From Modestobacter altitudinis (GTDB lineage Bacteria > Actinomycetota > Actinomycetes > Mycobacteriales > Geodermatophilaceae), in NCBI RefSeq assembly GCF_005930475.1, contig NZ_SJEW01000002.1, positions 1-64,000 of the forward strand: a DNA stretch of 64,000 nucleotides, written 5' to 3'. This document shows positions 44,587 through 62,314 of this stretch, piece after piece. The notes under the pieces are model-generated. The model was not told where the DNA came from. It worked only from the letters and a program-made list of their open reading frames with translations, and did no database searches. Within the stretch, counting starts at the first letter, position 1. Every line of letters begins with the position of its first letter. A program made the translations under genes and the position numbers.

Positions 44587-44604
44587 GCCGTTGCCGGATG
44601 GAGG

Positions 44605-44621: not shown

Positions 44622-44623
44622 GC

Positions 44624-44770
44624 TCAGCGGCTCCGGCCCGTGAGCCGACGTACCCGGCTCCCGCGGCGCACGAGAGGCCGGTGGAACCGAGCGCAGTCGC
44701 AGAGCGCGCAGTCGGTGCCGGCGCGGCAGTGCGCGTGCGCGCCGGAGACGTGGCCGCAGTCGCAGGTCAT
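44624..44770 (-). CDS. Small Cys/His-rich protein
   Basis: A 48-residue ORF that is easy to miss: MTCDCGHVSGAHAHC, then a CxxxxxCxxCxC cluster, then an Arg-rich tail. It has six Cys (3, 5, 15, 21, 24, 26) and four His (7, 12, 14, 29) in the first 30 residues, a zinc-ribbon-like or metal-binding pattern. GGAG lies 9 bases before ATG 44770. It is convergent with the PIG-L gene, with a hairpin between, and divergent from the wall-polymer operon. The dense Cys/His pattern, ribosome binding site and placement make a real gene likely. The function is unknown. Confidence 0.65.
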   Translation of the reverse strand: MTCDCGHVSGAHAHCRAGTDCALCDCARFHRPLVRRGSRVRRLTGRSR

Positions 44771-44901
44771 CTCAGACTGCTCCAAGAGGTCGATCACCGG
44801 ACCAACATGCCCATCCGATGCTGGTGTGAACCTGACAGCCGCATGTGGTTCAGGTGAACGTCGGTCGACGAGCTGTGTCGAGCCTTCGGGACGATGGAGC
44901 T

Positions 44902-44907
44902 TATGGT
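44902..44907 (+). promoter_or_regulatory. Leaderless-type -10 box for the wall-polymer operon
   Basis: TATGGT lies 6 bases before GTG 44914. It supports GTG 44914 as the start of the plus-strand cluster arm. Confidence 0.5.
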
Positions 44908-44913
44908 CGCTCT

Positions 44914-46410
44914 GTGGCGAGATTGCGGAACGTGGCCGTCGTACTGGCCGGTGGGACCGGCACCCGGGTGGGCCTGTCCATCCCCAAGCAGCTGATCAAG
45001 GTGGCCGGCAAGCCCATCATCGAGCACACCATCGGCATCCTGCAGGCATCTCCGTTGGTCGACGAGATCTTCGTGCTCATGACCCCTGGGCACCTGGACG
45101 CCGTCCGGGACATCCTGCGGCCGGGCACCTACCCGAAGGTGACCCAGGTGCTGGAGGGCGCGGAGACACGCAACGCCACCACCCAGCGGGCCTTGGACGC
45201 ACTCGGCAGCGAGGAGTGCAACGTCCTCTTCCACGATGCGGTCCGGCCGCTGCTCAGCCAGCGGGTGATCGAGGACTGCGTGGCCGCGCTCCACCGGTTC
45301 GACGCCGTGGACACGGCCATCCCCTCAGCCGACACGATCATCCAGGTGGACGAGCACACCGGTGAGGTCATCCGGGACGTGCTTCGCCGCAACTTGCTGC
45401 GCCGTGGCCAGACCCCGCAGTGCTTCCGGCTCTCAGTGATCCGGCGGGCCTACGAACTCGCGGCGAAGGACCCCGACTTCGAGGCCACCGACGACTGCAC
45501 CGTCGTGCTCCGCTATGCCCCCGAGGTGCCGATCGGCGTGGTGCGCGGCGAGGAGCGGAACATGAAGGTCACCGAGCCGATCGACGTCTACCTGGCCGAC
45601 AAGCTCTTCCAGCTCGACAACCACGACGCACCTCGCCCGGTGACCGACGCCGACTACCGCGCTGCGCTCGAGGGCAAGACGCTGGTCGTGTTCGGCGGCT
45701 CATACGGCATCGGCGGGGACATCGTGGCGCTCGCCGAGCGCCACGGCGCCACCACCTTCACCTTCAGCCGCTCCGCGACGGGCACCCACGTCGAGCGCCG
45801 CGAGGACATCGCGGCCGCCTGCGCACAGGTGCTCGAGCAGACCGGCCGGGTCGACTTCGTCGTCAACACCGCCGGGGTGCTCCCCCGCGGCGAGCTGGCC
45901 GAGACCAGCGAGGAGACGATCTACCTCGCGACCGACGTCAACTACCTGGCCCCGATCCACATCGCGCAGGTCTTCCAGCCACACCTGAAGGAGACCCGCG
46001 GCTCGCTGCTGCTCTTCACCTCCAGCTCCTACACCCGAGGCCGCAGCGGCTACAGCCTCTACTCCTCTGCCAAGGCCGCCACGGTGAACCTCACCCAGGC
46101 CCTGGCCGACGAGTGGGCCGCCGAGGGCGTCCGGGTCAACTGCGTGAACCCGGAACGCACCTCCACCCCGATGCGCACGAAGGCCTTCGGCGATGAGCCG
46201 GCCGGCTCGCTGCTCACCTCGGAGGCGGTCGCCGAGACCTCCCTCGGTGTCCTGGTGTCCGACTGGACCGGGCACATCGTCGACGTGCGCCGCGAGGACA
46301 AGTTGGCCTCCCACCTGAACGCCGCCGTGGCCGCGCACGAGATCCACGAGGAGGAGCCGGGCGACCTGGTCCCCGACGGAGTGGACGCCGACGTCGTCCT
46401 GCATGGCTGA
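44914..46410 (+). CDS. Bifunctional CDP-ribitol pyrophosphorylase/ribulose-5-phosphate reductase (Bcs1/TarIJ-like)
   Basis: 498-residue fusion. Residues 1-235 are an IspD/TarI-type cytidylyltransferase (VVLAGGTGTRVGLSIPKQ, FHDAVRPLLS, MKVTEPIDVYLADKLF). Residues 245-480 are a short-chain dehydrogenase (VVFGGSYGIGGDI, catalytic YSSAK). This is the architecture of Haemophilus Bcs1/Acs1, which makes CDP-ribitol from ribulose-5-phosphate. In most Gram-positives TarI and TarJ are separate. The presumed product is the activated ribitol phosphate donor for the polymerases encoded next. GTG 44914 starts at the TarI core; the frame is open to 44845. Ribitol is inferred from family; another polyol is possible. 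Confidence 0.88.
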   Translation: MARLRNVAVVLAGGTGTRVGLSIPKQLIKVAGKPIIEHTIGILQASPLVDEIFVLMTPGHLDAVRDILRPGTYPKVTQVLEGAETRNATTQRALDALGSEECNVLFHDAVRPLLSQRVIEDCVAALHRFDAVDTAIPSADTIIQVDEHTGEVIRDVLRRNLLRRGQTPQCFRLSVIRRAYELAAKDPDFEATDDCTVVLRYAPEVPIGVVRGEERNMKVTEPIDVYLADKLFQLDNHDAPRPVTDADYRAALEGKTLVVFGGSYGIGGDIVALAERHGATTFTFSRSATGTHVERREDIAAACAQVLEQTGRVDFVVNTAGVLPRGELAETSEETIYLATDVNYLAPIHIAQVFQPHLKETRGSLLLFTSSSYTRGRSGYSLYSSAKAATVNLTQALADEWAAEGVRVNCVNPERTSTPMRTKAFGDEPAGSLLTSEAVAETSLGVLVSDWTGHIVDVRREDKLASHLNAAVAAHEIHEEEPGDLVPDGVDADVVLHG

Positions 46411-47281
46411 CGCCGGACCGGCACCGTCGGTCGGCGTCATCGTCCTCAGCCAGGGACGACGACCGGCTGAGCTCGCCAGGGCACTGGCGTCGGTCATGGC
46501 ACAACGAGGCGTCCACACCGACGTGGTGGTGGTCGGCAACGGCTGGCAGCCGGACGGGCTGCCAGCCGGTGTGGCCAGCCTCGCCCTGCCGCAGAACGTG
46601 GGCATCCCGGCGGGCCGCAACGCGGGCGTGCCCGAGGTCCGCGGCGAGCTGCTGCTGTTCCTGGACGACGACGCTGCGCTCGCCGATCGGAGCTTCCTCG
46701 CCGACGCGGTGCGCCGGTTCGACGACCCGTCGCTCGGCCTGCTGCAGCCGCGCGTCGACACCGCCGGCGGTGAGGAGCCGCCACGCCGGTGGACGCCCCG
46801 ACTGCGGGTCGGTGACCGGCACCGGTCCAGTGCGGTCTTCTCGGTCTGGGAGGGCGCGGTCGTGGTCCGTCGAGCGGCCTTCGCGGCGGCCGGCGGCTGG
46901 GCGGCGCCGTTCTTCTACGCCCACGAGGGCATCGAGCTGGCCTGGCGGGTGTGGGACGTCGGCTACGAGGTCCGGTACGCCGGCGACCTGGCCGCGACCC
47001 ACCCGCTGACCCGGGTCACCCGGCACGCGGACTTCTTCCGGCTCAACGCCCGCAACCGGGTGTGGCTGGCCCGCCGGAACCTGCCCTGGGTGTTCGCGGC
47101 GCCCTACCTGCTGTCCTGGACGGCGCTGCAGGTGGTCCGCTCGGCTCGGCAGCCGCGCACGCTGGTGCCGTGGTGGGCGGGCTGGCTGGAGGGCTGGCAG
47201 ACCGATCCGGGCGGGCGTCGGCGGCTGCGCTGGACCACGATCGCCCGCATGGTGCGGCACGGCCGGCCGCCGATCGTCTGA
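46403..47281 (+). CDS. Family 2 glycosyltransferase
   Basis: 292-residue GT-A fold enzyme using a nucleotide sugar. It shows PSVGVIVLSQGRRP at the N-terminus, the nucleotide segment NVGIPAGRNAG and metal-binding LLLFLDDDA, followed by EGAVVVRRAAF and EDEL-like HEGIELAWR. A C-terminal hydrophobic stretch (WVFAAPYLLSWTALQVV) may associate with the membrane. The start overlaps the upstream stop by 8 bases. It probably adds a sugar to the linkage unit or side chain of the wall polymer. Confidence 0.88.
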   Translation: MADAGPAPSVGVIVLSQGRRPAELARALASVMAQRGVHTDVVVVGNGWQPDGLPAGVASLALPQNVGIPAGRNAGVPEVRGELLLFLDDDAALADRSFLADAVRRFDDPSLGLLQPRVDTAGGEEPPRRWTPRLRVGDRHRSSAVFSVWEGAVVVRRAAFAAAGGWAAPFFYAHEGIELAWRVWDVGYEVRYAGDLAATHPLTRVTRHADFFRLNARNRVWLARRNLPWVFAAPYLLSWTALQVVRSARQPRTLVPWWAGWLEGWQTDPGGRRRLRWTTIARMVRHGRPPIV

Positions 47282-47317
47282 CGGGTAACCTCGCCAGCGA
47301 GACCCTCAGGAGCCGTC

Positions 47318-48538
47318 TTGCCCCCCTCTCTGTTCTCCCCTGCCGGGCTGCGCTCGGCCGGTGGCCGCGTCATCCGGCGTCTGGGCCTGCTTCCCGGTGG
47401 CGAACCCGACGGGCTCGGCGAGGACGCCGCGATCGGCGACCTGGTGCTGCCGCAGCGGGTGCTCGTGTTCTTCCCCGAGCCGGTGCGCAACGCCTACCAA
47501 CTGGAGCAGTGGCTGCCCGCTCTCGCCGAGCTGGACCGTCAGCAGGGGGTCGCGCTGGTCACCCAGGACAGTCGGACCACCGCGCGGCTGCGCGAGCGCA
47601 CCTCGCTGCCGGTGCACTGCGTCGCCCGAACGGCGACCCTCGACCGGCTGGTCACGCGCGGCCGGTCGGCGCTGGCGCTGTACGTGAGCCACCACCCCCG
47701 CAACTTCCAGCTGCTGCGGTTCCCGACGCTCGCGCACGCCTACCTGGGGCACGGTGAGAGCGACAAGGCCGTGTCCGCGTCCAACCAGCTCAAGGCCTAC
47801 GACCGGTCCTTCGTCGCCGGACAGGCCGCGGTCGACCGGATCTCGGCTGAGTTGCTGTGGTTCGACGCCGATCGACTGGTCCGGATCGGCCGGCCGCAGG
47901 TGACCGCCGCAGCCGCGCGGAAGCCCGGTCAGCCGCCGACCGTGCTCTATGCACCAACCTGGGAAGGCGCGCAGCCGTCGATGGCCTACAGCTCGGTGGC
48001 CAGCCACGGTGCCGCGCTGCTGGCCTCACTGGCCGCCGCCGGGCTGCGCGTCGTCTACCGGCCGCACCCGCGTACCGGCGCGAACCGCCGCGAGGTGGCC
48101 GAGGCCGACCAGACGCTGCGCCGGCTGGTCAGCACGCCGCCGCTGCAGGCGACCGGCAGCACGGTGGACGTCGACTCCCCTCTCGAGACGGCCTTCGCCC
48201 GCGCCGACGCACTCGTCACCGACGTCTCGTCGCTGGCACCCGAGTGGCTGCCCACCGGCCGGCCGCTGGTCGTGACGGTGCCCGCCGCGGTCGGCGCCGT
48301 CGTCCCGCCGTCGCCCCTGCTGGCCGCCGCGCCCCGGCTGGCGGCCGCGGACGCCGGTGGGGCCGGCGAGCTGCTCCGTCGGCTGCTGACCGACGACGAC
48401 CTCGCACCGCGCCGGTCAGAGCTGGTCAACCACTACCTCGGCGACATCCGGCCCGGTGCGGCGACAGAGGCGTTCCTCGCCGCCTGCGCCGAGCTGGTGG
48501 CCGCGGTCGACGGCGCACGGACGACGGCGCGGCCGTGA
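47318..48538 (+). CDS. CDP-glycerol/ribitol phosphotransferase-like protein, short form
   Basis: 406 residues, related to the C-terminal catalytic half of TagF/TarL-type polymerases. Shared with the protein at 50833-52737 are YLGHGESDKAVSASN, PTVLYAPTWEGAQPS, RPHPRTGANRRE and ALVTDVSSLAPEWL. The last is the conserved nucleotide-alcohol-binding motif. The GHG(D/E)SDK box replaces the usual TagF motif and marks a subfamily of its own. TTG 47318 has AGGAG 5 bases upstream, which decides the start. It probably transfers polyol phosphate units in the cytoplasm. Confidence 0.82.
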   Translation: MPPSLFSPAGLRSAGGRVIRRLGLLPGGEPDGLGEDAAIGDLVLPQRVLVFFPEPVRNAYQLEQWLPALAELDRQQGVALVTQDSRTTARLRERTSLPVHCVARTATLDRLVTRGRSALALYVSHHPRNFQLLRFPTLAHAYLGHGESDKAVSASNQLKAYDRSFVAGQAAVDRISAELLWFDADRLVRIGRPQVTAAAARKPGQPPTVLYAPTWEGAQPSMAYSSVASHGAALLASLAAAGLRVVYRPHPRTGANRREVAEADQTLRRLVSTPPLQATGSTVDVDSPLETAFARADALVTDVSSLAPEWLPTGRPLVVTVPAAVGAVVPPSPLLAAAPRLAAADAGGAGELLRRLLTDDDLAPRRSELVNHYLGDIRPGAATEAFLAACAELVAAVDGARTTARP

Positions 48539-49344
48539 CCGCTGCCCGCCCGGCACGCCCGACGATCCGCCAGCTCCGCGAGGTGACCCAGCCGCCGTCG
48601 ATCCGCGGCCGCCGCAACGCCGAGCACTGGACCGGCGACCTGTACATGCGGCGTATCTCGCCCTACCTGACCCGGCTGCTGCTGCGTGCCGGGCTGTCGG
48701 CGAACGCGGTGACCGGGCTGATGATCGTGACCGGTGCCGCGTCCGGCTTTGCGTTGCTCGTCCCGGGGCTGGCCGGCGCCGTCCTGGCGGTGGCCCTCAC
48801 CCAGCTGCAGATGCTGTGGGACGCCAGCGACGGCGAGGTGGCCCGCTGGCGTGGCACGTCCAGCCCGCTGGGCGTCTTCCTGGACAAGGTCGGCCACTAC
48901 CTCGCTGAGTCCCTGATCCCGCTGGGCCTCGGTGTCCGCGCCGCCGGGGGGATCGACGACCTCGCGGAGGGCGACACCTACGGCTGGACGACCCTGGGAG
49001 GCGTCCTGGCCGTCGTGATCGTGCTGAACAAGGCGCTCAACGACATGGTGCACGTCGCGCGGGCCGACGCCGGGCTGGCCCGGGTCAGCGACGACGAGGC
49101 CACCACCGCCCCCCGGGCGGGCGGCTTGGCCCGGTTGCGGCGGCTCGCCCGGTTCGTGCCCTTCCACCGGCTCTACCACTCGATCGAGCTGAGCCTGCTG
49201 GTGCTCGTCGCGGCGGTCGTCGACGCGGTCGCGGGCTCTCTCGTGGGCACGCAGGTGCTGCTGATCGTGCTGCTGCCGGCGGCACTCCTGGCGGTGGCCG
49301 GCCACTTCCTGGCGATCGTCACCTCCTCCCGCCTCCGGTCCTGA
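48535..49344 (+). CDS. CDP-alcohol phosphatidyltransferase family protein with altered motif
   Basis: 269-residue membrane enzyme with about six hydrophobic segments. The CDP-OH-P signature D-xx-DG-xx-AR-x8-G-xxx-D-xxx-D reads Asp96, Asp99, Gly100, Ala103, Arg104, Gly113, Asp117, but the fourth acidic position is His121 (VFLDKVGHYLAE). That Asp is the proposed general base in the family. GTG 48535 overlaps the upstream stop (GTGA). In this cluster it may attach a polyol phosphate or prime the polymer on a lipid. Activity with His at that position is not established to my knowledge. Confidence 0.82.
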   Translation: MTAARPARPTIRQLREVTQPPSIRGRRNAEHWTGDLYMRRISPYLTRLLLRAGLSANAVTGLMIVTGAASGFALLVPGLAGAVLAVALTQLQMLWDASDGEVARWRGTSSPLGVFLDKVGHYLAESLIPLGLGVRAAGGIDDLAEGDTYGWTTLGGVLAVVIVLNKALNDMVHVARADAGLARVSDDEATTAPRAGGLARLRRLARFVPFHRLYHSIELSLLVLVAAVVDAVAGSLVGTQVLLIVLLPAALLAVAGHFLAIVTSSRLRS

Positions 49345-49552
49345 TCCGGGAAGCGGGGATCCGGGAGCGACGCCCGCCGGGCTGGGGCGCTTGCGACCCG
49401 CGGGAACGGTGTGCAGGAGGGGTCGAGTCTTCCCGAACTCACGGTGTGGCGGACCGCTTCGTCACTCACTGTCCTCATCTCCGCTTGTACCGTGACGATC
49501 GAGCGGCCAGGGCTCCAGCTGTGCCGCCCGACGAAACGGTGGTTGCGTTCTG
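49345..49552 (+). promoter_or_regulatory. Upstream region of the pyruvyl transferase gene
   Basis: 208 bases without a gene and with lower GC than its surroundings. TACCGT (49488-49493) is a possible -10 box that would give a leader of about 50 bases. The pyruvyl transferase gene may thus be transcribed separately from the four genes before it. Confidence 0.35.
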
Positions 49553-50788
49553 ATGTCCAAGATCCTCGTCCGCTCGGCGCAGGACCCCTTCGAGGTCCTC
49601 AACCCCGAGAAGGCCACCCGCAGCATGGGCGGCAACTCCGGCAACCTGCTGTACGCGCACAGCGTCCACCGTGCGCTGAGCACCTCGGACGCCGAGATCA
49701 AGGCCGGGGGCTTCACGGCGCACACCCTCGATGACCCGACCGAGTGGATCAACAAGATCAACCGGAAGTTCGACCGGTTCGTCGTCCCGATGTCGAACGC
49801 CTTCCGGTTCGGGTTCAGCCAGCAGCTGGTCAAGCTCACCGAGATCGTCCGCCGGCTCGACATGCCGGTGACCGTGATCGGGGTCGGTGCCCAGGCGCCG
49901 GCCGACGAGCCCAGCGAGGGCGGCTTCGCGATGGGCAAGACCGGGTCGTCCTGGGCTCCCAGCCCGGAGGAGGCCGAGCGGCACAACAAGAACGTGTTCG
50001 ACTTCGCCACCGCGGTGCTGGAGAAGTCGACGTCGCTGGGGGTCCGCGGCGCGTTCACCAAGCGGTACTTGGAGTCACTCGGCGTCCCGGGTGACCGGGT
50101 CGACGTGATCGGCTGCCCGTCGCTGTACACGTGGGGGCCGGGGCTGCGGGTGGACAAGAAGTTCCGGCCGATCACCCGCCGGTCCCGGATCTCCGTCAAC
50201 GTCGACCACCGCGTCGCGGGCATGGGCGCCGTCGTCGAACGTAACGCGGAGCTCTACCCCCGGCTGACCAGCCCGGTGCAGGACTCCCTCTCGGCCCGGA
50301 CCATCATCCGGGGCGAGAACCAGCACCCCGAGGGGAAGTTCGACCCCCGGACGCCCATCCACACGGAGCACCCGCTGTACACGTCCAAGCGGATGGTCTA
50401 CTACCCCAACCCCTGGGGCTGGATCGAGTCCTTCAAGGAGCAGCGCTTCGCCTTCGGCAGCCGACTGCACGGCAACATCGCCGCACTGCTGGCCGGCACC
50501 CCGGCACACCTGCTCGCGCACGACAGCCGCACGGTGGAGCTCGCCGAGTACCACCGCATCCCGCACACCCGGATCAGCGAGCTCGAGACGCCGCCCACGG
50601 CGGCCGAGCTGTACTGGAAGAGCTCGTTCCGCGAGTTCAACGAGCTGATGCCGGTGCGCTTCCAGGTCTACTTGGACTTCTTGCACCGCAACGCGTTGAC
50701 GACCGTCTTCGACGAGGGCCAGAGCGCGGCCGACTTCGACGCGCAGATCGTCGCAGGCCAGCAGGTCGGGCCGGTCCTGCCCCGCTGA
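49553..50788 (+). CDS. Polysaccharide pyruvyl transferase family protein
   Basis: 411 residues, related to CsaB/WcaK-type enzymes that put a pyruvate ketal on sugars of wall polymers, using phosphoenolpyruvate. Visible are MGGNSGNLLYAHSVH near the N-terminus, VIGVGAQAPA, SLGVRGAFTKRYLESLGV, VIGCPSLYTWG and the late RFAFGSRLHGNIAALLAGTPA with the conserved His. Length is normal. ATG 49553 is the natural start. It is the last gene of the plus-strand arm. Pyruvylated teichoic acids and secondary polymers are known, so decoration of the polymer is the likely role. Confidence 0.88.
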   Translation: MSKILVRSAQDPFEVLNPEKATRSMGGNSGNLLYAHSVHRALSTSDAEIKAGGFTAHTLDDPTEWINKINRKFDRFVVPMSNAFRFGFSQQLVKLTEIVRRLDMPVTVIGVGAQAPADEPSEGGFAMGKTGSSWAPSPEEAERHNKNVFDFATAVLEKSTSLGVRGAFTKRYLESLGVPGDRVDVIGCPSLYTWGPGLRVDKKFRPITRRSRISVNVDHRVAGMGAVVERNAELYPRLTSPVQDSLSARTIIRGENQHPEGKFDPRTPIHTEHPLYTSKRMVYYPNPWGWIESFKEQRFAFGSRLHGNIAALLAGTPAHLLAHDSRTVELAEYHRIPHTRISELETPPTAAELYWKSSFREFNELMPVRFQVYLDFLHRNALTTVFDEGQSAADFDAQIVAGQQVGPVLPR

Positions 50789-50819
50789 GACGGAGTCGGG
50801 GAGCCCTCGTACGCGACGC

Positions 50820-50846
50820 GCCGGCCGGGCGCTCAGCCCGGCCGGC
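50820..50846. terminator. Shared hairpin between convergent wall-polymer operons
   Basis: GCCGGCCGGGC (50820-50830) and its exact complement (50836-50846) with loop GCTCA. It ends the plus-strand arm 32 bases after the pyruvyl transferase stop. The loop contains the stop codon of the minus-strand gene (50833-50835), so part of the stem is coding sequence. Confidence 0.75.
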
Positions 50847-52737: not shown

Positions 52738-55700
52738 CCGGCCTTTGCCTGCAGCCGGGCCTCGGGGATCCAGGCGTCGATCACCCGGGCGGCCGCGTGC
52801 CCGTCGTTGAGCTGGTTGAACCGGCGGTGGAACTCTGCGCGGGCGTCGGCGTACTCCGCAGCGACCTCGTCCAGCCGGAGCAGGGCGTCGGCGACCTCCT
52901 CGGTCGTCCGCAGCCAGGGTCCGGGAGCGGTGGGCTCGAAGTCGTACAGGAAGGACCGGCCCTGCACGTAGTCCTCCAGGTCAGGCACGAAGAAGAGCAT
53001 CGGCTTGCCGGTGAGGGCGTAGTCGAAGCGCAGCGAAGAGTAGTCGAGGACCGCGACGTCGGAGGCGAGCACCAGCTCGTTGATGTCCGGGTGGTCGGTG
53101 ACGTCCAGGACGACGGCGTGGTCGGAGAAACGGGTGGCCTCACCGAGGTTGTGGTTGTGCCCACGCAGCAGCAGCACGTGGTCGCTGCCCAGCTCGGTGG
53201 CCAGCCGGTCGAGGTCCAGCGCGTCGAACATCGGCGCGTTCCAGGTGTCTGCCGAGATGCTCTCCCGCCAGGTCGGCGCGTAGAGCACCGCCTTTTGGTC
53301 GGCGCGGATGCCCAGACGGGCCCGGGCCCGGGCTCGGCGCTCGGCCACGCCCTCGCCCACCAGGGCGTCGTCCCGCGGGTAACCGCTCACCATCACCTCC
53401 CCGGTGAACCGGTACTCCCGCCGGTAGAGCTCCTCGCAGAACGGCGCGGGCACCAGGGCGACGCTCCAGGCGCGCCCCAGCCGGGCCGTCTCCCGCTGCA
53501 GGTCGCGCTCGTTGCGGCCCTGCTCCTTCCAGAAGGAGACCCCCATGGACTTGAAGGGGTAACCGTGGAAGGTCTGGATGAAGACCTGATGCCCCCGGCG
53601 CAGCCACCACCGCGGGAAGTCGACGTTGTTGCTCAGGTATCGGGCGTTCGCCAGCAACTCGTACCAGCGGGCCGATCCGATCAGCACCGGGCGAGCTCCG
53701 GCGGGCAGGTCCACCGAGTGGTCGGCGACCCCCCAGTACAGCTCCAGCGGCGCACCACGCCGGTGCAGCTCCTCGTGCAGCGCCAGCTGGCTGTCGGTGG
53801 CCACCTCGCCGCGATAGCACTGGAACAGCATCGCGTCCTCGGGCTCGACCGAGCGGTGCGGATGCGCCAGCTGCATGCGCCGCTGCGCGGTCTTGCCCCA
53901 CTCAGCATCGGTCAGCGGCGGACGGGCCCGCACGGTGAACGTGCCCGGGGCTTGCCGGCCGAAGCGCAGCACGCACTCCGGGTGCTCCTCCTCCTCGGGC
54001 AGCCGGTCCAGCAGCCGCCACGACGGCCAGGGCCGCCGGACCGCGCCGTCCTCGGTCTGCACGGCAAGGGCGTACGTGCCGGTCGGCCACACCCGCGGCG
54101 CGCGGTCCCACCGGGAGACCCGCAGCGGGAACTCCAGCACGGTGCGATCGCCTTCGGTGCGGACGGTGTCGGCGGGAAGGGTGACCCGGTGGCTGGCCAG
54201 CGTGGCGCTCACCGGAAGCTCAGCGCCGGTCGCCTCGACCACGAGGCGGAGGACGTCGGACGTGCGCTCCACGTCGACGACCTCGAGCACGGCGAGGCCT
54301 TCGACCACCTCCACGTGGCCGCGCGGGGTGCGCCGCCAGACGGCCGCACCCGGCCCCGGGGCGCCGGCGATGCGGGAGGAGTCGTGCGGGGTATCCCAGG
54401 CCAGTCGACGGGTGCCGCCATCGGCCGTCACCGCGCGCACCTGCCAGATGCGGTTGCGCACGGGTCGCGTGGAGTCGGTGGCGGGCAGGCTGACCTCAGC
54501 GGAGTAGGTCCCGTCGGCGTTGCGGGTGACCGGCACCTCGACCCGGTGGCGGGCCCGGTCCGACCACACCCGAAGCCGGTCGATCACGACGTCCTCGGTG
54601 CGCAGCCGGGCGATCAGCGCACCGCCGGAAACGGCGAGCGTCTGGGCGCAGACCGCCGGCCGGCGGGCGCGCAAGGTGAGCCCATCGGTGACCGACCGGA
54701 CCGGGGCGAGCAGCACGTCGTCGACGAACGCGGAGCGCAGCAGGCTGGCCGAGCCCGCCGCGATGAGGGTGCGGACCAGCCCGGTGCGCTCGACGTCGAG
54801 CGCGCGCACCGTCGCCTCCAGCCGCCACACCCGGTCGGTGGCCGGCCTCGTACCCAGCAAGGCGCAGTCGGCCGGGCGCAGCCGGGCCACGAACCCTGCG
54901 TTCTCGTAGCGCTGGAAGGCGTCGTTGCCCCAGCGAGTCGCGGCCGGCAGCACCACCGGCTCCACGTCGAAGGGCCACGACTCGCCGGAGGCAGGGTCGA
55001 CCAGCCGCAGCGTCGTCTCCGATTGCACGTCGGTGAGATCGATGCCGCGGATGAACGCCCAGCCGGTGATCTCCAGGACGTCGTCCACCCATGCGACGCG
55101 CTGGACCGCCGCAGCCAGCCGGGTCTCGCCGGCGGCCAGCCGGCGCACCTGGACCGGCATCGGCTCGAACACCGCGACGTCGGTGCCGTCCTCGGCCTGC
55201 ACCTCGCCGTCGACCACGCTGGTGCGCGGGCTGGAGCCGTAGAGCGCCACATGCTCGACCGCCTGCTCGACCTCGGCCCACCGGCCCTCGGCGGTCAGCC
55301 AGGCCAGTGCCTTGGCGACCACCCGCACCTCGGCGAGCGCCTCCGCGTCAGCGCGAGCGACGAAGGTCGCGGCCAGCCGCTGGAGCACCTGGCGCACCTC
55401 CGGCACGGCGTCGACACTCGCCCGGATGCGTGGCTCGAGGTCGATGTCGATGACCCGCGTTGTCCACGCCCGCCGCTCGGGGTCGGTGCCGCGCTCGTCG
55501 ACGTGCGCGGTTGCGGCGAGCACGTCAGCGGCGAACGCCTGCGCGCGGTCGATGTCGAGGACCTTCGTGCCCAGCAGCCCGTCGCCCTCCGACGGCGTCC
55601 AGTGCAGGGTGACCGCCCGCAGGACGTCGATGCGGTCAGCGGCGACGTAGGCCGACGCCAGGGTGGCGCTGGGCTGCGGGACGTCGGCCGGGAAGGTCAG

Positions 55701-56315
55701 CCCGGCCGTCCAGAAAGAGGTGCGGAACATCCGGTCGCCGAGGAGCAGGTCGTGCATCACCGCCGGGAAGTCGTCGACGGTGATCGCCCGGCGGTCGACC
55801 AGGTGCACCTCGGGCGCCCAGTGCGGGTCGGACAACCGCCCACCCGCGGACTTGCGCGGTCGACCCACCGCGATGTCGGACCCGGACCCGGCCAGCGAGC
55901 CGACGAGGGTGCGCAGCGCGTGCCGGGGCAGGGTGTCCTCGGCGTCGACGAAGATCAGGAAGCGGCCCTTGGCGGTCGCCGCGCCGGCGTTGCGCGCCGC
56001 TCCGACACCGCGGTCGGGCCGGGCCAGCACGCTCATCCGCTTGTCCTTAGCGGCGAGGGTCCGCACGACCTGCAGCGTCTCGTCGGTGGAGCCGGCGTCG
56101 ACGACGACGATTTGGAGCCGCCGGTGGCTCTGCGACCGGACGCTGCCGAGGCAGCGGGCAACCCAGCCGACTGAGTCCTGGGTCGTCACGACCACGGTGA
56201 CCAGCGGACTCCCCCACCTGCGACGCGCCTTGCGGAGCCGGTGCACCAACCGGCCGCGGAACCGCCAGGGGACGACCCGACGCCCCAGCCGGAGCGGGTG
56301 CGTGAGGCGGCTCAC
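52734..56315 (-). CDS. Glycosyltransferase/CDP-glycerol glycerophosphotransferase fusion
   Basis: 1193 residues. About 30-250: GT2 domain (PLVTVVVTTQDSVGWVARCL, AGSTDETLQVV, NAGAATAKGRFLIFVDAED). About 330-760: beta-rich linker modules, one with ITGWAFIRGIDLT. About 800-1190: TagF/TarL-type polymerase (FIQTFHGYPFKSMG, GYPRDDAL, KAVLYAPTWRES, LLRGHNHNLGEATR, DVTDHPDINELVLASDVAVLDYSS, FNQLNDGHAA). Such fusions occur in other actinobacteria. GTG 56315 overlaps the acyltransferase stop (GTGA) and has GGAG upstream; open frame to 56576 is antisense overlap. It probably alternates sugar and polyol phosphate addition. The TWHGxPLK box of TagF reads TFHGYPFKSMG here. Confidence 0.88.
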   Translation of the reverse strand: MSRLTHPLRLGRRVVPWRFRGRLVHRLRKARRRWGSPLVTVVVTTQDSVGWVARCLGSVRSQSHRRLQIVVVDAGSTDETLQVVRTLAAKDKRMSVLARPDRGVGAARNAGAATAKGRFLIFVDAEDTLPRHALRTLVGSLAGSGSDIAVGRPRKSAGGRLSDPHWAPEVHLVDRRAITVDDFPAVMHDLLLGDRMFRTSFWTAGLTFPADVPQPSATLASAYVAADRIDVLRAVTLHWTPSEGDGLLGTKVLDIDRAQAFAADVLAATAHVDERGTDPERRAWTTRVIDIDLEPRIRASVDAVPEVRQVLQRLAATFVARADAEALAEVRVVAKALAWLTAEGRWAEVEQAVEHVALYGSSPRTSVVDGEVQAEDGTDVAVFEPMPVQVRRLAAGETRLAAAVQRVAWVDDVLEITGWAFIRGIDLTDVQSETTLRLVDPASGESWPFDVEPVVLPAATRWGNDAFQRYENAGFVARLRPADCALLGTRPATDRVWRLEATVRALDVERTGLVRTLIAAGSASLLRSAFVDDVLLAPVRSVTDGLTLRARRPAVCAQTLAVSGGALIARLRTEDVVIDRLRVWSDRARHRVEVPVTRNADGTYSAEVSLPATDSTRPVRNRIWQVRAVTADGGTRRLAWDTPHDSSRIAGAPGPGAAVWRRTPRGHVEVVEGLAVLEVVDVERTSDVLRLVVEATGAELPVSATLASHRVTLPADTVRTEGDRTVLEFPLRVSRWDRAPRVWPTGTYALAVQTEDGAVRRPWPSWRLLDRLPEEEEHPECVLRFGRQAPGTFTVRARPPLTDAEWGKTAQRRMQLAHPHRSVEPEDAMLFQCYRGEVATDSQLALHEELHRRGAPLELYWGVADHSVDLPAGARPVLIGSARWYELLANARYLSNNVDFPRWWLRRGHQVFIQTFHGYPFKSMGVSFWKEQGRNERDLQRETARLGRAWSVALVPAPFCEELYRREYRFTGEVMVSGYPRDDALVGEGVAERRARARARLGIRADQKAVLYAPTWRESISADTWNAPMFDALDLDRLATELGSDHVLLLRGHNHNLGEATRFSDHAVVLDVTDHPDINELVLASDVAVLDYSSLRFDYALTGKPMLFFVPDLEDYVQGRSFLYDFEPTAPGPWLRTTEEVADALLRLDEVAAEYADARAEFHRRFNQLNDGHAAARVIDAWIPEARLQAKAG

Positions 56316-57402
56316 CGTGCTCCCCGCCCGGTGCCGACCGTGAGCCCGGCAGCAGCCGGCACCGCTCGCAGCCAGTCGAGGCGGGGCTCGACCAACGGGC
56401 GGAACACCCGCTGGACGGCGGAGGTCGAAAGCAACGCCGCCCACAGGACGGCCAGCGCCATCAGCAGGAACAGCCGGGGCAATGCGTTGAACCACTCCAA
56501 GGCGGAGGTCGTCTCCCTCACGAGGTAGATGGGGAACAGGTGGAGCAGGTAGACGTACATGGTCCGGGAGCCCCACCCGGACAGAACCGAGGCCCCCGCG
56601 GGACCAGCGACAGGACGCAAGCGCCCAGCAGCGGGGCGAGTCCGGCGAGCGCGACCCGCACGACGCCGGCCCACCACTCCGGCCTGCCCAGGTCGTCGTA
56701 GTTGGCCGCCATCCGCACCCACGGACGCAAGCGCAGGTCCCGGATCCCGTCGATGTGCAGGTAGGCGAGTGCGAGCGCCCCGGCGAGGATCACGACGGCC
56801 CCGACGCGGGTCGAGCGAGCAGTCAGACGGCCGAACACCGGTGAGGTGGTCCAGCATCGCTCCCGGGTCGCCCAGCCCAGGACGAAGAAGGGAAGCATCC
56901 CGAAGATCTTCCCCGTCTCGAAGGTCGGCCCGACCGACCCGGCATAGCCCGCGCCGACAGAGATCGCAACGCTGATAAGGACCGGGTACCTGAGGCTGAC
57001 CAGGTAGGGCAGCATCGCTCGCCACAACGCAAGAGCGACCAGGAACCACAGGAATGAGTACGGGCTGCCAAGATCGAGCCGGGCACTTCCTTCCGCCGCC
57101 CGGCGCAGGCCGAACCAGATGACGCTGGAGACGACGTAGGGCACCACCAGCTGTCGCACGCTGGAGAACGCCGTGTCCGCCGTGATCGGACCGGCCTTGG
57201 CGAAATGTCCGGCGACGAAGGCAAACAGCGGCATGTGGAAGGCGTAGATGACGAAGTACAGAGCCGTCATCGTGGCCGAAGACGTGAAGTCCTCCACGGC
57301 GTGGCCCACCACGACGAGGACTACGGCGACAAACCGGACGTTGTCCCAGTAGGGATCGCGCACCCGCTCCCGTACCGGGGTCGTCGCGGTCGCACCGGTC
57401 AC
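56312..57402 (-). pseudogene. Acyltransferase family 3 protein, frameshifted
   Basis: Membrane O-acyltransferase of the OafA/fucose-4-O-acetyltransferase type, with about ten hydrophobic segments. The frame from GTG 57402 (DPYWDNVRFVAVVLVVVGHAVED, FHMPLFAFVAGHF, PYSFLWFLVALALWR) runs to about 56595. The C-terminal part (SGWGSRTMYVYLLHLFPIYLVRE through to 56312) is in another frame. Adding one base in the C5 run at 56593-56597 (plus strand) joins them as LVPRGASVLSG. Both halves are otherwise clean. It is either a recent frameshift, an on/off switching tract or a sequencing error. The intact enzyme would acylate the wall polymer. Its ends overlap neighbours by GTGA at both sides. Confidence 0.8.
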
Positions 57403-58238
57403 TCGTCGTCATCCTCCCGGGCATAGGCGGCCAGCACGTCGTCCAGCGGGCCGTCCAGGACGAGCGCGCCGTTGCGCATGTAGAGCCCCCGGGAGCAGAA
57501 GCGCCGCAGATTGCGCTCGCTGTGCGACACCAGGAACAGCGTGCGCCCCTCTTCGAGCAGCTGCTCGAGGCGCCGGTAGCACTTGCGGCGGAAGCGCTTG
57601 TCGCCGACCGCCAGCACCTCGTCGACGAGGATGACCTCCTCCTCCAGCCGGGAGACCACAGCGAAGGCGACCCGGGCCTTCATCCCGCTGGACAGGTGCT
57701 TGTACGGGGCGTCGAGAAAGGCCCCTGTCTCGGCGAAGGCGACGATCTCGTCGAAGCGCTCGGCGATCACCGACTTCGGCATGCCGTGCAGACCGGCGGT
57801 CAGCGCGATGTTCTCCCGCACCGTGAGGTCGCCGACGAAGCCGCCGGTGATCTCGATCAACGGCGCCACACCGCCGCGGACCTCCACCTCACCGACATCG
57901 GGCAGCAGGACCCCGGCGATCAACTTGAGCAGCGTCGACTTCCCCTGTCCGTTGCGCCCGACGACCCCGATCGCCTCACCGGGGTAGACGTCGAAGCTGA
58001 CGCCGTCCACGGCCCAGAACGAGTCGGTCCGCACGCCGCCGCTGCGCCGGTAGACCGCGTCCCGCAGGCTGCGGTGCCGGCTTCCGCGGTTGTAGAGCAC
58101 GCCGACGTCGCGCACGGAGATGATCGGGGAAGCGGCCACGTTGGGGGCCATGATGCCGGGCGCCTCGACGGTGCGCCCGGCCGCGTCCAGGCGGCAGGCA
58201 CCGGTTCCGGTCAGGAGGGGTCCGGTCACGTGGTTCAC
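57399..58238 (-). CDS. ABC transporter ATP-binding protein, TagH-like
   Basis: ATPase of the wall-polymer exporter. From GTG 58238 it has 279 residues: ISVRDVGVLYNRGSRHRSLRDA, Walker A VGRNGQGKST, signature LSSGMKAR, Walker B VILVDEVLAVGD and the switch His in LFLVSHS. This matches TagH/RfbE-type exporters of teichoic acids and O-antigens. GTG 58238 overlaps the permease stop (GTGA). ATG 58153 (MAPNVAASPIISVRDVG) is a shorter alternative without the overlap. Its partner permease is upstream. Confidence 0.92.
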   Translation of the reverse strand: MNHVTGPLLTGTGACRLDAAGRTVEAPGIMAPNVAASPIISVRDVGVLYNRGSRHRSLRDAVYRRSGGVRTDSFWAVDGVSFDVYPGEAIGVVGRNGQGKSTLLKLIAGVLLPDVGEVEVRGGVAPLIEITGGFVGDLTVRENIALTAGLHGMPKSVIAERFDEIVAFAETGAFLDAPYKHLSSGMKARVAFAVVSRLEEEVILVDEVLAVGDKRFRRKCYRRLEQLLEEGRTLFLVSHSERNLRRFCSRGLYMRNGALVLDGPLDDVLAAYAREDDDE

Positions 58239-59110
58239 AGCTCCTTGAGGACCGTGCGCTCCAGCCGGGCGAAGACCGCCCAGCCGAGGACGAGCATCGC
58301 GACGGACACGCCGACCGACAGCGCGACGCGGGAGGGGTCGAGGAGCTCGGGGAAGAAGCCGGCCCGGAAGAGCTCGAAGATTCCGACCAGCGGGTTGAGG
58401 GTGAACAGCCACTCCCAGGCCTGCGGCACGTCGCGCACCGCGTAGACGACGGGCGAGGCGTAGAAGGCCAGCCGCAGGACGATCCGGACGATCCGCTCGA
58501 GGTCGCGCACCAGGACGACCAGCGGCGCGAGCAGGAACCCGATGCCGGTGAGCAGCGTGGCCAGCAGCAGGGTCGCCGGGAGCACCAGGACGATCCGCCA
58601 GTTGACGTCGGCACCCGTCACGACCGCGAACAGCGCCAGCACCGGCAGGCTGAAGAGGAACTCCACCCCCTTGGCCAGCACCACCCGCAGCACCCACAGC
58701 TCGCGGGGCACGTTGGTGGACCGGATCAACTTCCCGTCCGTGCGCAGCGCCCGCGCCGCCTCGCTCAGGCCGCCGTTGAACCAGGTCCAGGGCAGCAGGG
58801 CGGCCAGCAGGAAGACGATGTAGGGCTCTTCCCCGGCGGACCGGGAGAAGATCTGGGTGAAGACGACCCAATAGGCGCCGGCCATGAGCAGCGGCTCGAG
58901 GACGGTCCAGACCCAGCCAAGCCAAGAGCCGGCGTAGCGGACCTTCAGGTCGCGGGAGACCAGCAGGCCCAACGCGCGACGGCGGCTCCACACGGCGGCG
59001 GGCCGGCTCCACAGCGGTGCCCGGCGGGTGGGAGCCCGGCGTGCTGGCGCGTTGGTCGCGCTGGCCTCCGGCGCGCTCCTCCGCTCAGTCCCGGCTTGGG
59101 CGGCGGGCAC
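58235..59110 (-). CDS. ABC transporter permease, TagG-like
   Basis: Polysaccharide or teichoic acid exporter permease, 291 residues, six predicted helices in the ABC-2 pattern (DLKVRYAGSWLGWVWTVLEPLLMAGAYWVVF, VFLLAALLPWTWFNGGLSEA, LNPLVGIFELFRAGFF). A basic N-terminus of about 35 residues precedes the core. GTG 59110 starts 2 bases after the glycosyltransferase stop. Together with the TagH-like ATPase it forms the export system of this cluster. Confidence 0.92.
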   Translation of the reverse strand: MPAAQAGTERRSAPEASATNAPARRAPTRRAPLWSRPAAVWSRRRALGLLVSRDLKVRYAGSWLGWVWTVLEPLLMAGAYWVVFTQIFSRSAGEEPYIVFLLAALLPWTWFNGGLSEAARALRTDGKLIRSTNVPRELWVLRVVLAKGVEFLFSLPVLALFAVVTGADVNWRIVLVLPATLLLATLLTGIGFLLAPLVVLVRDLERIVRIVLRLAFYASPVVYAVRDVPQAWEWLFTLNPLVGIFELFRAGFFPELLDPSRVALSVGVSVAMLVLGWAVFARLERTVLKEL

Positions 59111-59112
59111 GC

Positions 59113-60186
59113 CTAGCCCGCGCAAGGGCGGCTGAGGTCGCCCGGCCGGCGCCCGAAGGCGAAGCCGGCGCCCCAGCTGAGGTGGATGGTGGCCAGCACG
59201 ACGGGCAACCAGGCCCGCGCGCGCCAACCCTGCGACCGACCCTCGACGAGGGAAGCGACGAGCACGCCCGCAGCGTATGCGGCCGGCACGACCCAGCCCC
59301 AGGTGAGGAGGGTCACTCCGGTCAGCAGCCCGACGACGCCTGCGGTCATCCCCGCCAAGATCCCGCAGACTGCCAGCGGCGGCGCCAGGTAGCGCGGACT
59401 CACGGTCCCCGGGTACTGCCGGATGACCTCACGCCGCCACCGGCCGGTGGCGTGGAACTGACGCACCAGCTCCATCCACGAGGAACGCGGCCGGTAGGTG
59501 ACACCCAGGTCCGGGGAGAACCAGACGAGCTCGCCGGCCTGGCGGATGCGGTGGTTCAGCTCCCAGTCCTGGGCGCGGTGGTAGTGCTCGTTGAAGCCGC
59601 CCAGTCGCTGGAGGACCTCGCGCCGGAAGACGCCGAGGTACACCGACTCCGCCGGCCCCGCGGTCCCGCCGACGTGGAACGTGCCGCCACCGAGACCCAC
59701 TGGCGAGCAGTAGGCCTTGGCGACGGCCCGCTCGAAACCCGTCTGCCCGACGGCGAGCATCAGGCCGCCGACGTTGGCAGCTCCGGTGGCCTCGAGGAGC
59801 AAGACCGCCTGCTCGAGGTACCCGGCCCGCAGCACGCCGTGTCCGTCCACCCGGGCGACGATGTCGTGGCTGGCCGCGAGCAGCCCGATGTTCAGGCCTG
59901 CGGGCGTCTTCCCCGTCGGGTTCCGCACCAGCTTGATCCGCGGGTCCGCGGCAGCCAGACGGTGAGCCACCAGCTCGGTGCCGTCCCGCGACGGACCGAG
60001 GCAGACGATGAGCTCGACCTCTCCCGCGTACTGCTGGGCGAGGATCTCACCGACGCTCTCGGCGAGGTGCTTGGCCTCGTTGAGCACCGGCATGACGACG
60101 GAGATGGACGGCCAGACGCGCGCCGTCGAGAGGTGCGACTCGGAGTGGTGAGCATCCAGCGACAGAGCTGCGACCAGGTCGGGCAT
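59113..60186 (-). CDS. Family 2 glycosyltransferase, ExoA-like
   Basis: 357 residues: GT2 domain with PSISVVMPVLNEAKHLAESV, VCLGPSRDGTELVA, NPTGKTPAGLNIGL and metal-binding IVARVDGHGVL, then AQDWELNHRIRQAG. Three C-terminal hydrophobic segments (about 250-340) anchor it. It resembles succinoglycan ExoA-type enzymes. ATG 60186 follows TAATGT by 7 bases, consistent with a leaderless start of the minus-strand arm. It is the first gene of that arm and could act on a lipid-linked intermediate. Confidence 0.9.
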   Translation of the reverse strand: MPDLVAALSLDAHHSESHLSTARVWPSISVVMPVLNEAKHLAESVGEILAQQYAGEVELIVCLGPSRDGTELVAHRLAAADPRIKLVRNPTGKTPAGLNIGLLAASHDIVARVDGHGVLRAGYLEQAVLLLEATGAANVGGLMLAVGQTGFERAVAKAYCSPVGLGGGTFHVGGTAGPAESVYLGVFRREVLQRLGGFNEHYHRAQDWELNHRIRQAGELVWFSPDLGVTYRPRSSWMELVRQFHATGRWRREVIRQYPGTVSPRYLAPPLAVCGILAGMTAGVVGLLTGVTLLTWGWVVPAAYAAGVLVASLVEGRSQGWRARAWLPVVLATIHLSWGAGFAFGRRPGDLSRPCAG

Positions 60187-60336
60187 GGCGGTGACATTAC
60201 GGAGGCAAACGACTCCTATCCGCTCAAAACGTCGACTTCAGCACTTGTTGCCATCACCCAGACACCTCGCTGTTCCCACTCATCTCAGAAGTCACATCCG
60301 TCACGGGGACTGGACAGCGAGCCGTCGGTCTCGTGG
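60187..60336. promoter_or_regulatory. Low-GC promoter region of the minus-strand cluster arm
   Basis: 150 bases, clearly less GC-rich than the rest of the window. TAATGT (complement at 60194-60199) lies 7 bases before the GT2 ATG. No gene is visible. The response regulator gene ends at its far edge, so its terminator may also be here, though I see no strong hairpin. Confidence 0.5.
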
Positions 60337-61008
60337 TCACAACAACCGGTTGGTGGCTGCCCAGCGGGTGAGCTCGTTGCGGTTGGACAGCTGCAGCTTG
60401 CGCAGCACGTTGGAGGCGTGGGACTCCACCGTCTTCACCGAGATGAACAGCCGGCCGCCGATCTCCCGGTAGGTGTAGCCGCGCGCCAGCAACTGCATGA
60501 CCTCGCGCTCCCGGGCCGACAGCAGGTCCAGCCCGGGGTCGGTCGCCGGGTCGGTCGCCGGGTCGGCGGCCGGCGCGGGGGCGGGCCCGGTGGCGGCGAA
60601 GGCGTCCAGCACGAAGCCGGCCAGCCGTGGGCTGAACACGACGTCGCCCTCGGCGACCCGGCGGACGGCGTCCCGCAGGTCGGCGGCGGAGATCGTCTTG
60701 GTGACGTACCCGCGGGCTCCGGCCCGGATGACGGCGATGACGTCCTCGGCGGCGTCGGAGACCGACAGCGCCAGCCACCGGGTGCCCGGCAGCTCGGCGC
60801 GCAGGGACTGCAGGACGGCGTGGCCACCGCCCCCGGGCAGGTGGACGTCGAGCAGCACGACGTCGGGCGTCGTCTCCCGGATGCCGGTGACGGCGGTGGC
60901 GACGTCGGCGGCCTCACCGACCACGTCCACGTCGTCGCCGAGCTCCGCGCGCACCCCGGCGCGGACCATGGCGTGGTCGTCGACCAGGAAGACCCGGGTG
61001 CGGCTCAC
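60337..61008 (-). CDS. LuxR-family response regulator
   Basis: DNA-binding response regulator of the NarL/LiaR class, 223 residues. The receiver has acidic DDHAMVR near 9-15, phospho-acceptor Asp in VVLLDVHLPG near 56 and the Lys of YVTKTIS. A linker with an ATDPATDP repeat follows, and the C-terminal LuxR helix-turn-helix has LLSAREREVMQLLARGYTY and VKTVESHASNVLRKL. GTG 61008 overlaps the kinase stop (GTGA). It is the cognate partner of the PspC-domain kinase and the likely binder of the duplicated element upstream of the pspC genes. Confidence 0.92.
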   Translation of the reverse strand: MSRTRVFLVDDHAMVRAGVRAELGDDVDVVGEAADVATAVTGIRETTPDVVLLDVHLPGGGGHAVLQSLRAELPGTRWLALSVSDAAEDVIAVIRAGARGYVTKTISAADLRDAVRRVAEGDVVFSPRLAGFVLDAFAATGPAPAPAADPATDPATDPGLDLLSAREREVMQLLARGYTYREIGGRLFISVKTVESHASNVLRKLQLSNRNELTRWAATNRLL

Positions 61009-62240: not shown

Positions 62241-62314
62241 GACGTCGATGGTGTCACCGTGCCCGCCCGTGGCACACCGGTGATCACCCCGAGTGCGGAT
62301 GCCGGGACGGATGG

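What the first reader, a model, noticed from the sequence alone, without database searches (positions are those of the whole stretch)
44914..60186. Two-armed locus for a teichoic-acid-like wall polymer in a high-GC actinobacterium
Twelve contiguous genes supply a complete logic: CDP-ribitol synthesis (fused TarI-TarJ), three polymerase-like CDP-polyol transferases, two stand-alone GT2 enzymes plus one GT2 fused to a polymerase, a CDP-alcohol transferase, pyruvylation, acylation, and a TagGH-type exporter. The arms converge on one shared hairpin. The mix of a Haemophilus-type fusion enzyme with atypical polymerases and a TagGH exporter does not match the Bacillus or Staphylococcus tag/tar layout. 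The polymer's structure cannot be read from sequence and may be new.
Basis: partly seen in the sequence, partly recalled or inferred. Interest (0 to 1): 0.75.

Follow-up and report, generated by a model that had tools for sequence, protein, structure and literature searches.

The report
Swappable cell-wall polymer gene island
A 15.7-kb block of eleven genes that most likely builds and exports a phosphate-containing cell-surface polymer sits at one chromosomal spot in some members of a bacterial family and is missing from most others; part of it is constant while the chain-building genes are exchanged between strains, much as in capsule serotype loci.

Summary
The genome is a Modestobacter (Geodermatophilaceae). 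New: the block is an island (about 44591-60336), cleanly absent in the closest relatives. Its signature enzyme A1 occurs in 12 of 112 family genomes. Six other genomes carry the module at this site and one elsewhere: A1-A4 recur in all seven, exporter genes B4-B6 in the six whose stretch reached them, while the rest changes (TagF-like polymerase here, Stealth polymerases in two others). TarI-TarJ fusion is ordinary in actinobacteria. The large polymerase carries the proline of glycerol-phosphate enzymes, not the glycine of ribitol ones, so CDP-ribitol probably serves priming or linker steps. The CDP-alcohol transferase A4 belongs to a widespread actinobacterial subfamily (137 of 394 genomes), usually beside an A2-type GT2 (34 of 40 loci read); its catalytic-base aspartate is His in 37 and Ala in 3 of 40. 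Best reading: a capsule-like, cassette-exchanging, teichoic-acid-type locus; a new variant of a known kind.

The parts
44591..60336 (.). the island: sequence absent in G006, where the matches to window 44590 and 60337 lie 6 bp apart
   Evidence: blastn of the window against empty sites, junction read
43873..44586 (+). left flank: PIG-L deacetylase-like gene
   Evidence: Pfam PF02585 1.2e-28; found beside the site in the six other filled and 17 empty sites
44914..46410 (+). A1: CDP-ribitol synthase-like TarI(IspD)-TarJ(SDR) fusion; start may be 44845
   Evidence: PF01128 1.5e-44, PF00106 8.9e-30; ribitol-5-P cytidylyltransferases are among its four best PDB hits
46403..47281 (+). A2: GT2 glycosyltransferase, usual neighbour of A4 elsewhere
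   Evidence: PF00535 1.4e-11; within 500 bp and on the strand of A4 in 34 of 40 loci
47318..48538 (+). A3: short TagB/TagF-like polyol-phosphate transferase, HG[ED]S subfamily
48535..49344 (+). A4: CDP-alcohol phosphotransferase with His in place of the fourth signature Asp
   Evidence: PF01066 30.9 bits; motif in 15 of 15 alignment rows; His 37, Ala 3 of 40 wider homologues
48820..48897 (+). A4 signature motif, D96 to H121
   Evidence: aligned to AF2299 and IPCT/DIPPS sequences
49553..50788 (+). A5: polysaccharide pyruvyl transferase
   Evidence: PF04230 1.7e-18
50833..52737 (-). B1: N-terminal long helices (membrane-type by my reading) plus HGDS-type Glyphos_transf domain
   Evidence: PF04464 29.4 bits; AF2 model mean pLDDT 76
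52734..56306 (-). B2: GT2 + about 550 aa without Pfam match + TagF-like domain with HGYP motif; likely backbone polymerase; start uncertain (ORF open to 56576)
   Evidence: PF04464 8.9e-83, PF00535 3.2e-24; TagF 3l7i 6.8e-51; motif aligned; middle without match at E 5
56312..57402 (-). B3: acyltransferase-3, frameshifted
57399..58244 (-). B4: TagH/Wzt-like ABC ATPase (start approximate)
   Evidence: PF00005 2.3e-19; NCBIfam teichoic-acid export model 179 bits, under its cut-off of 538
58235..59104 (-). B5: ABC-2 permease (start approximate)
   Evidence: PF01061 1.3e-16, scanned as 58235-59227
59113..60186 (-). B6: GT2 glycosyltransferase
   Evidence: PF00535 3.9e-20
60337..61020 (-). right flank: LuxR-type response regulator, followed by a PspC-domain histidine kinase (61005-62570)
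   Evidence: PF00072, PF00196, PF04024, PF02518; conserved site in the family

Best explanation
The island is a capsule-type, ABC-exporter-dependent locus for a teichoic-acid-like surface phosphoglycan. Its constant genes (A1-A4 on the left, B4-B6 on the right) supply CDP-ribitol, a lipid-proximal starter or linker, and export; exchangeable genes supply the polymerase and decorations. Inferred order: A1 reduces ribulose-5-P and makes CDP-ribitol; A4, with A2 and B6, builds the starter on a membrane lipid using a CDP-polyol; A3 and/or B1 add one or a few polyol-phosphates as TagB-like primers; B2 extends a glycosyl-glycerol-phosphate backbone; A5 and B3 add pyruvate and acyl groups; B4/B5 export it; one of the five LCP ligases encoded elsewhere may attach it to peptidoglycan. 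Shown by sequence: gene content, island nature, constant and exchanged genes, motifs. Inferred: every substrate, the order of steps, the anchor, and wall attachment.
For: Domain content. Clean empty site in a close relative; in 17 of 17 fetched island-free sites PIG-L and the response regulator are neighbours, from a few bp to 4.2 kb apart. A1-A4 recur in seven other genomes, B4-B6 in the six whose stretch reached them, with other genes exchanged: Stealth proteins in G008 and G108, B2-type fusions in G114 and G061. B2 has Pro at the TagF P447 position, as TagF and Cps3D do, while TarL and two G003 enzymes have Gly. B2 shares the GT-A/TagF architecture of group 2 capsule polymerases (PMC5974469 passages). 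A4-A2 pairing, often near exporter-type genes, in other Actinomycetia. In Streptomyces roseosporus deletion of tagG slowed growth and impaired sporulation (PMC10269677 passages; not shown to be the same operon).
Against: No TagD over the cut-off in 8 of 8 genomes, so a CDP-glycerol source is only a candidate (G000:C77, 58.9 bits TagD against 65.7 heptose-1-P adenylyltransferase). The Pro/Gly rule rests on few characterised enzymes, and A3/B1 have neither. B3 is broken, so the locus may be decaying. The exchanged genes are not confined to the centre: B2-type genes lie between B5 and B6 in G114 and G061, and in G070 extra genes lie beyond B6. A1 in Stealth-type islands could serve side chains. 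The listings showed no wall-polymer chemistry for Geodermatophilaceae.
Confidence: 0.6

Rival explanations
1. A plain poly(ribitol phosphate) wall teichoic acid: A1 makes CDP-ribitol and B2 polymerises it; A5 places pyruvate ketals on ribitol as in Nocardiopsis metallicus.
For: A1 is the only nucleotide-activating enzyme recognised in the island; pyruvylated 1,5-poly(ribitol phosphate) exists in Nocardiopsis metallicus (PMC6801904 passages); no clear TagD in the genome.
Against: B2 and the five B2-type relatives read carry HGYP, the glycerol-type Pro; ribitol enzymes TarL and Bcs3 and two G003 enzymes beside A1 carry Gly; the Stealth-type islands of G008 and G108, in which no B2 was found, keep A1.
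Confidence: 0.2
2. An exopolysaccharide or capsule that is never attached to peptidoglycan, anchored to a lipid starter made by A4.
For: No TagO/TagA/LCP match in the island; A4 is a CDP-alcohol phosphotransferase by Pfam; Gram-negative group 2 capsules use a conserved lipid anchor, a priming transferase of the same Pfam family, and an ABC exporter (PMC11666461 passages).
Against: Five LCP-type, one WecG/TagA-type and two MraY/TagO-type genes exist elsewhere in the genome; the exporter ATPase scores best with teichoic-acid export models, though under their cut-offs.
Confidence: 0.2
3. A decaying remnant: the frameshifted acyltransferase marks a locus being lost, consistent with its absence in most of the genus.
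For: Frameshift; absent from the closest relatives and from most of the genus.
Against: The other ten genes are open frames with coding-type third-position GC of 0.91-0.97; the frameshift sits near G runs in a 161-contig draft; an acyltransferase is likely to be an optional decoration.
Confidence: 0.1

Closest known systems
Group 2 capsule loci of Gram-negative bacteria (Actinobacillus pleuropneumoniae cps, Haemophilus influenzae type b bcs)
   Same: CDP-polyol synthesis, a short PF04464 transferase as possible primer, a large GT/TagF-like or Stealth polymerase, ABC export, constant and serotype-specific regions (PMC11666461, PMC10299916, PMC5974469; passages)
   Different: Gram-positive cell; no Kdo/lyso-PG anchor genes recognised; CDP-alcohol phosphotransferase A4 and GT2 A2 in the constant part; pyruvyl transferase; exchanged genes also outside the centre
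Wall teichoic acid tag/tar loci (Bacillus, Staphylococcus; layout recalled)
   Same: TarI/TarJ activities, TagF-like domain, TagGH-type exporter
   Different: Linkage-unit genes not in the locus, TarIJ fused, TagF fused to GT2, extra A3/B1 subfamily, A4, no TagD over cut-off
Streptomyces syntenic block of CDP-alcohol phosphatidyltransferase, GT2, tagG, tagH, araM, nucleotidyltransferase (PMC13118837; one passage read)
   Different: There the polyol source looks to be an AraM-type dehydrogenase plus nucleotidyltransferase; in the island it is TarIJ, and A3, B1, B2, A5, B3 are added
Bifidobacterial tag cluster (PMC12286996; section 20 read, passages of the rest)
   Same: two TagB-type genes, tagGH and an ispD gene together, patchy distribution
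   Different: section 20 mentions no A4, pyruvyl transferase, or exchanged genes at a fixed site, and reads ispD as isoprenoid synthesis
Streptomyces WTA and teichuronic-acid-like (utr) loci (PMC13274773; passages)
   Same: TarIJ and TagF, strain-variable glycopolymer genes at a fixed place, linked there to an arms race with umbrella toxins
   Different: different enzymes and different chromosomal site

Membership tests
Canonical wall teichoic acid (tag/tar) locus | TagO/TagA linkage-unit genes with the locus | tested here: not met
   no such match among the eleven genes; MraY/TagO-type at C104 and C17, WecG-type at C33
Canonical wall teichoic acid (tag/tar) locus | TagF-type polymerase domain and two-part ABC exporter | tested here: met
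   NCBIfam exporter models hit but under their cut-offs
Canonical wall teichoic acid (tag/tar) locus | TagD glycerol-3-P cytidylyltransferase in the genome | tested here: inconclusive
   0 of 8 genomes over the cut-off; weak candidate at G000:C77
Canonical wall teichoic acid (tag/tar) locus | polymer covalently bound to peptidoglycan | not testable with these tools
   needs wall chemistry; five LCP-type genes exist
GT-A/TagF-like capsule polymerase family | N-terminal GT-A-type domain and C-terminal TagF-like domain with both catalytic His | tested here: met
   B2: PF00535 37-159, PF04464 823-1177; HGYP and RGH aligned to TagF
GT-A/TagF-like capsule polymerase family | TPR-rich region (in the majority of members) | tested here: inconclusive
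   no TPR family in the whole-protein scan and none at E 5 in the middle 556 aa
CDP-alcohol phosphotransferases (PF01066) | four signature aspartates D1-D4 | tested here: not met
   D4 is His in 15 of 15 and His 37 / Ala 3 / Asp 0 of 40 wider homologues; a second CDP-OH-type gene near A4 homologues has Asp in 19 of 20 matched stretches, the other stretch being an A4 gene itself
CDP-alcohol phosphotransferases (PF01066) | score over the Pfam gathering cut-off | tested here: met
   30.9 bits against 22
Serotype-like exchangeable polymer locus | constant genes with different polymerase genes at one site in related genomes | tested here: met
   exchanged genes are mostly but not only central
Bcs1-type CDP-ribitol synthase | IspD-type cytidylyltransferase fused to an SDR-type reductase | tested here: met
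   not compared with Bcs1 itself, activity not tested

The most novel reading that the evidence does not exclude
A4 defines an unrecognised subfamily of CDP-polyol-using phosphotransferases in which His replaces the catalytic-base Asp, and which, with its GT2 partner, primes ABC-exported wall glycopolymers across Actinomycetia; the nucleotide-activated polyol is supplied by an AraM-type dehydrogenase plus a nucleotidyltransferase in some lineages and by the TarI-TarJ fusion in this island. Actinobacteria would then have their own constant starter unit, equivalent to the conserved anchor of Gram-negative capsules, onto which exchangeable polymers are built.
Probability: 0.25. Interest if true: 0.72.

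Novelty: new variant of a known kind. Interest (0 to 1): 0.5.

Why it matters
Starter chemistry and attachment of actinobacterial wall polymers are poorly known. The locus offers close relatives with and without it, swapped polymerases over constant genes, and one small enzyme (A4) whose activity can be tested directly. If A4 makes the starter, it would mark polymer loci in a large share of Actinomycetia and give a common handle on wall polymers, some of which are receptors for antibacterial toxins.

Tried and rejected
Recent horizontal gain shown by trees: the A1-A4 tree keeps Geodermatophilus, Blastococcus and the G008-G019 pair together; the window's place is unresolved and a Modestobacter clade is not rejected (p-AU 0.124), so gain against repeated loss stays open. 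The island lies right of PIG-L in Modestobacter and Geodermatophilus but left of it in both Blastococcus genomes, which hints at more than one insertion or a local rearrangement. GC3 of 11 island genes is lower than of 25 hand-picked other window genes (median 0.933 against 0.963, p 0.002; one overlapping ORF was dropped, and B3 entered with its N-terminal part only), but total GC differs only at p 0.054: weak evidence of foreign origin.

Hairpin between the arms: rejected. ARAGORN tRNA-Thr at 46366-46459: antisense to A1/A2 coding sequence, taken as a false hit, not followed up.
Full report
WHAT IS THERE. The window is part of contig C84 of a 5.18-Mb, 161-contig genome. Eleven genes fill 44914-60186 in two convergent arms: A1 IspD-SDR fusion, A2 GT2, A3 short Glyphos_transf-like, A4 CDP-OH_P_transf, A5 pyruvyl transferase; and B1 helices plus Glyphos_transf-like, B2 GT2-TagF fusion, B3 acyltransferase-3, B4 ABC ATPase, B5 ABC permease, B6 GT2. 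B3 is interrupted by a frameshift. The supposed shared hairpin is not distinguishable from shuffles.

IT IS AN ISLAND. Of 35 family genomes, UvrD and the PspC-type histidine kinase lie within about 9 kb of each other in 27 and 18-21 kb apart in two (G000, G008); in six they are on different contigs or one was not found. In G006 the DNA is collinear up to window 44590 and resumes at 60337 with 6 bp between: the island is about 15.7 kb, between the ends of a PIG-L gene and a response regulator. In 17 of 17 fetched island-free sites PIG-L and the response regulator are neighbours, from a few bp to 4.2 kb apart; the longer gaps hold other sequence. The four genomes closest to the window at UvrD (97-99% identity: G006, G010, G007, G014) all lack the island. 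A1 is found in 12 of 112 family genomes, the window's included.

CONSTANT AND EXCHANGED GENES. A1-A2-A3-A4 next to UvrD/chorismate mutase recurs in G008, G019, G106, G114, G061 and G070; B4, B5 and B6 recur on the other side in G008, G019, G114, G061 and G070. Limits: in G106 only a fragment of B4 was in the stretch read; G019 is split over two contigs, so its middle is unknown; in G061 the response regulator lay beyond the stretch. G108 has A1-A4 and B4-B6 but none of the site's genes within 11 kb beyond A1; its other side was not read. Contig lengths identify G106, G114, G061 and G070 with Geodermatophilus obscurus, Geodermatophilus sp. LHW52908, Blastococcus aurantiacus and Blastococcus sp. 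TF02-09 records. G003, G026, G097 and G135 have A1 in other surroundings. Exchanged genes: G008 and G108 carry two Stealth proteins each and an M23-fn3 gene, with acyltransferase-3 in G008 and Exo_endo_phos in G108; G106's centre was scanned only in part (GT92/GT2-type, DUF6056); G114 carries a B2-type fusion (33%), B1 (52%), a PF00534 transferase and acyltransferase-3; G061 a B2-type (34%), B1 (52%), pyruvyl transferase (38%) and acyltransferase-3 with SGNH; G070 B1 (47%) and an ORF without Pfam match, with a GDP-mannose dehydratase and an acyltransferase-3 beyond B6. In G114 and G061 the B2-type gene lies between B5 and B6, so exchange is not confined to the centre. The same genes in other orders occur in Mumia and in Nocardioidaceae/Actinomycetota MAGs; of 80 loci chosen by A1, 12 have A4, and all 12 also have A3. 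Flanks of many of the 80 loci are cut by contig ends.

WHICH POLYOL. Bcs3's ribitol-phosphate domain has Gly where TagF has Pro447, and its authors report Pro conserved in glycerol- and Gly in ribitol-transferring homologues (PMC10299916, passages). The alignments here agree: TagF and Cps3D HGTP; TarL NAVG in the H300N mutant crystallised; two enzymes beside A1 in G003 have HGVG. B2 and five B2-type relatives have HGYP: predicted glycerol type. A3 and B1 types have HG[ED]S in all 18 rows of alignment A2 and all 9 of alignment A3, neither Pro nor Gly. So the CDP-ribitol of A1 is more likely used by A3, B1 or A4 than by B2. This is inference from motifs. A CDP-glycerol source is uncertain: 0 of 8 genomes pass the TagD cut-off, and the best G000 candidate is ambiguous.

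A4. Its only solved relatives by sequence at E <= 0.01 are AF2299 (5.7e-9) and an inositol-phosphate cytidylyltransferase/CDP-inositol phosphotransferase (0.0027); the second uses a CDP-polyol, which fits a CDP-polyol substrate. The signature motif keeps D1, D2 and D3, but D4, the presumed catalytic base in M. tuberculosis PgsA1 (PMC6506517, passages), is His in 15 of 15 close homologues. A profile of A4 finds 137 of 394 class genomes at E <= 1e-50, the window's included. I read 40 loci from these, chosen by hand to spread over families (two are the Mumia loci already in the 15): D4 is His in 37, Ala in 3, Asp in none; an A2-type GT2 lies within 500 bp on the same strand in 34; B4-type ATPase lies within 10 kb in 24, B5-type in 26, B6-type in 19; full-length A1 in 5; A3 or B1 type in 14 (tblastn E <= 1e-6 over 60% of the query, and ABC genes can match by general similarity). 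In 18 of 40 an NTP_transferase-type and an iron-alcohol-dehydrogenase-type (AraM-like) gene lie beside A4 (Pfam was run on one or two representatives). A second CDP-OH-type gene, fused to DUF5941 in the representative scanned, has Asp at D4 in 19 of 20 matched stretches; the twentieth is an A4 gene itself, an internal control. A 2026 Streptomyces survey lists a block of CDP-alcohol transferase, GT2, tagG, tagH, araM and nucleotidyltransferase as teichoic-acid-associated by synteny (PMC13118837, passage). TarIJ and the dehydrogenase-nucleotidyltransferase pair would do the same kind of job, making a CDP-polyol, which suggests that A4 consumes it. Of the 40 loci, 18 have neither, so other sources must exist or the link is looser.

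MECHANISM AND PRECEDENT. Gram-negative group 2 capsules use a conserved anchor, a primer of family PF04464 (CpsA, related to TagB), TagF-like or Stealth polymerases and an ABC exporter (PMC11666461, PMC10299916, PMC5974469; passages). The island has the same division: constant priming and export, exchangeable polymerase. By analogy B2 (GT-A/TagF order) would make a beta-linked glycosyl-glycerol-phosphate chain. Pyruvylated ribitol teichoic acid is known from Nocardiopsis metallicus (PMC6801904, passages), so A5 is not exotic. TarIJ in S. griseus and strain-variable wall glycans that serve as toxin receptors are published (PMC13274773, passages). The genome also holds a separate TarF-like gene (G000:C73) beside polyol-dehydrogenase-like and NTP-transferase genes, so the island is an extra, not the only, polyol-phosphate system.

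VERDICT. A real and interesting locus: a new variant of a known kind. The most valuable new points are the island with exchanged genes and the aspartate-lacking A4 subfamily; both rest on sequence only.

Noticed in passing
G000:C73:95881-102230 (L040:11882-18231): Locus with a mannitol/D-arabinitol-dehydrogenase-like gene, a TarF-like gene (WHGTP motif) and a MobA-like NTP transferase; a strong TarF-like gene outside the island (E < 1e-80) is in 22 of 25 family genomes searched. Possibly a second CDP-polyol polymer system.
   Followed up: partly
window 56312-57402 (-): Acyltransferase-3 gene split by a frameshift near G runs; real mutation or draft error.
   Followed up: partly
window 46366-46459 (-): ARAGORN reports a tRNA-Thr antisense to the A1/A2 junction; probably a false hit in high-GC coding DNA.
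   Followed up: no
L177-L183, L196, L204, L207-L212, L214-L216: Recurrent block: NTP_transferase-type, AraM-like Fe-ADH, A4-type and A2-type genes, often with ABC permease and ATPase, and in many a DUF5941-CDP-OH-type gene upstream; no paper in the library holds the word DUF5941.
   Followed up: partly
L024:4763-6260 (G007) and other empty sites: The same intergenic spot holds other sequence of about 1.0-4.2 kb in some relatives, suggesting an insertion hotspot.
   Followed up: partly
L016 (G003:C147): Another A1-bearing locus with several PF04464 enzymes, two with the ribitol-type HGVG motif, in a different arrangement.
   Followed up: partly
L136:13456-14163 and L135:18456-19163: In both Blastococcus genomes PIG-L lies on the right of the island instead of the left.
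   Followed up: partly
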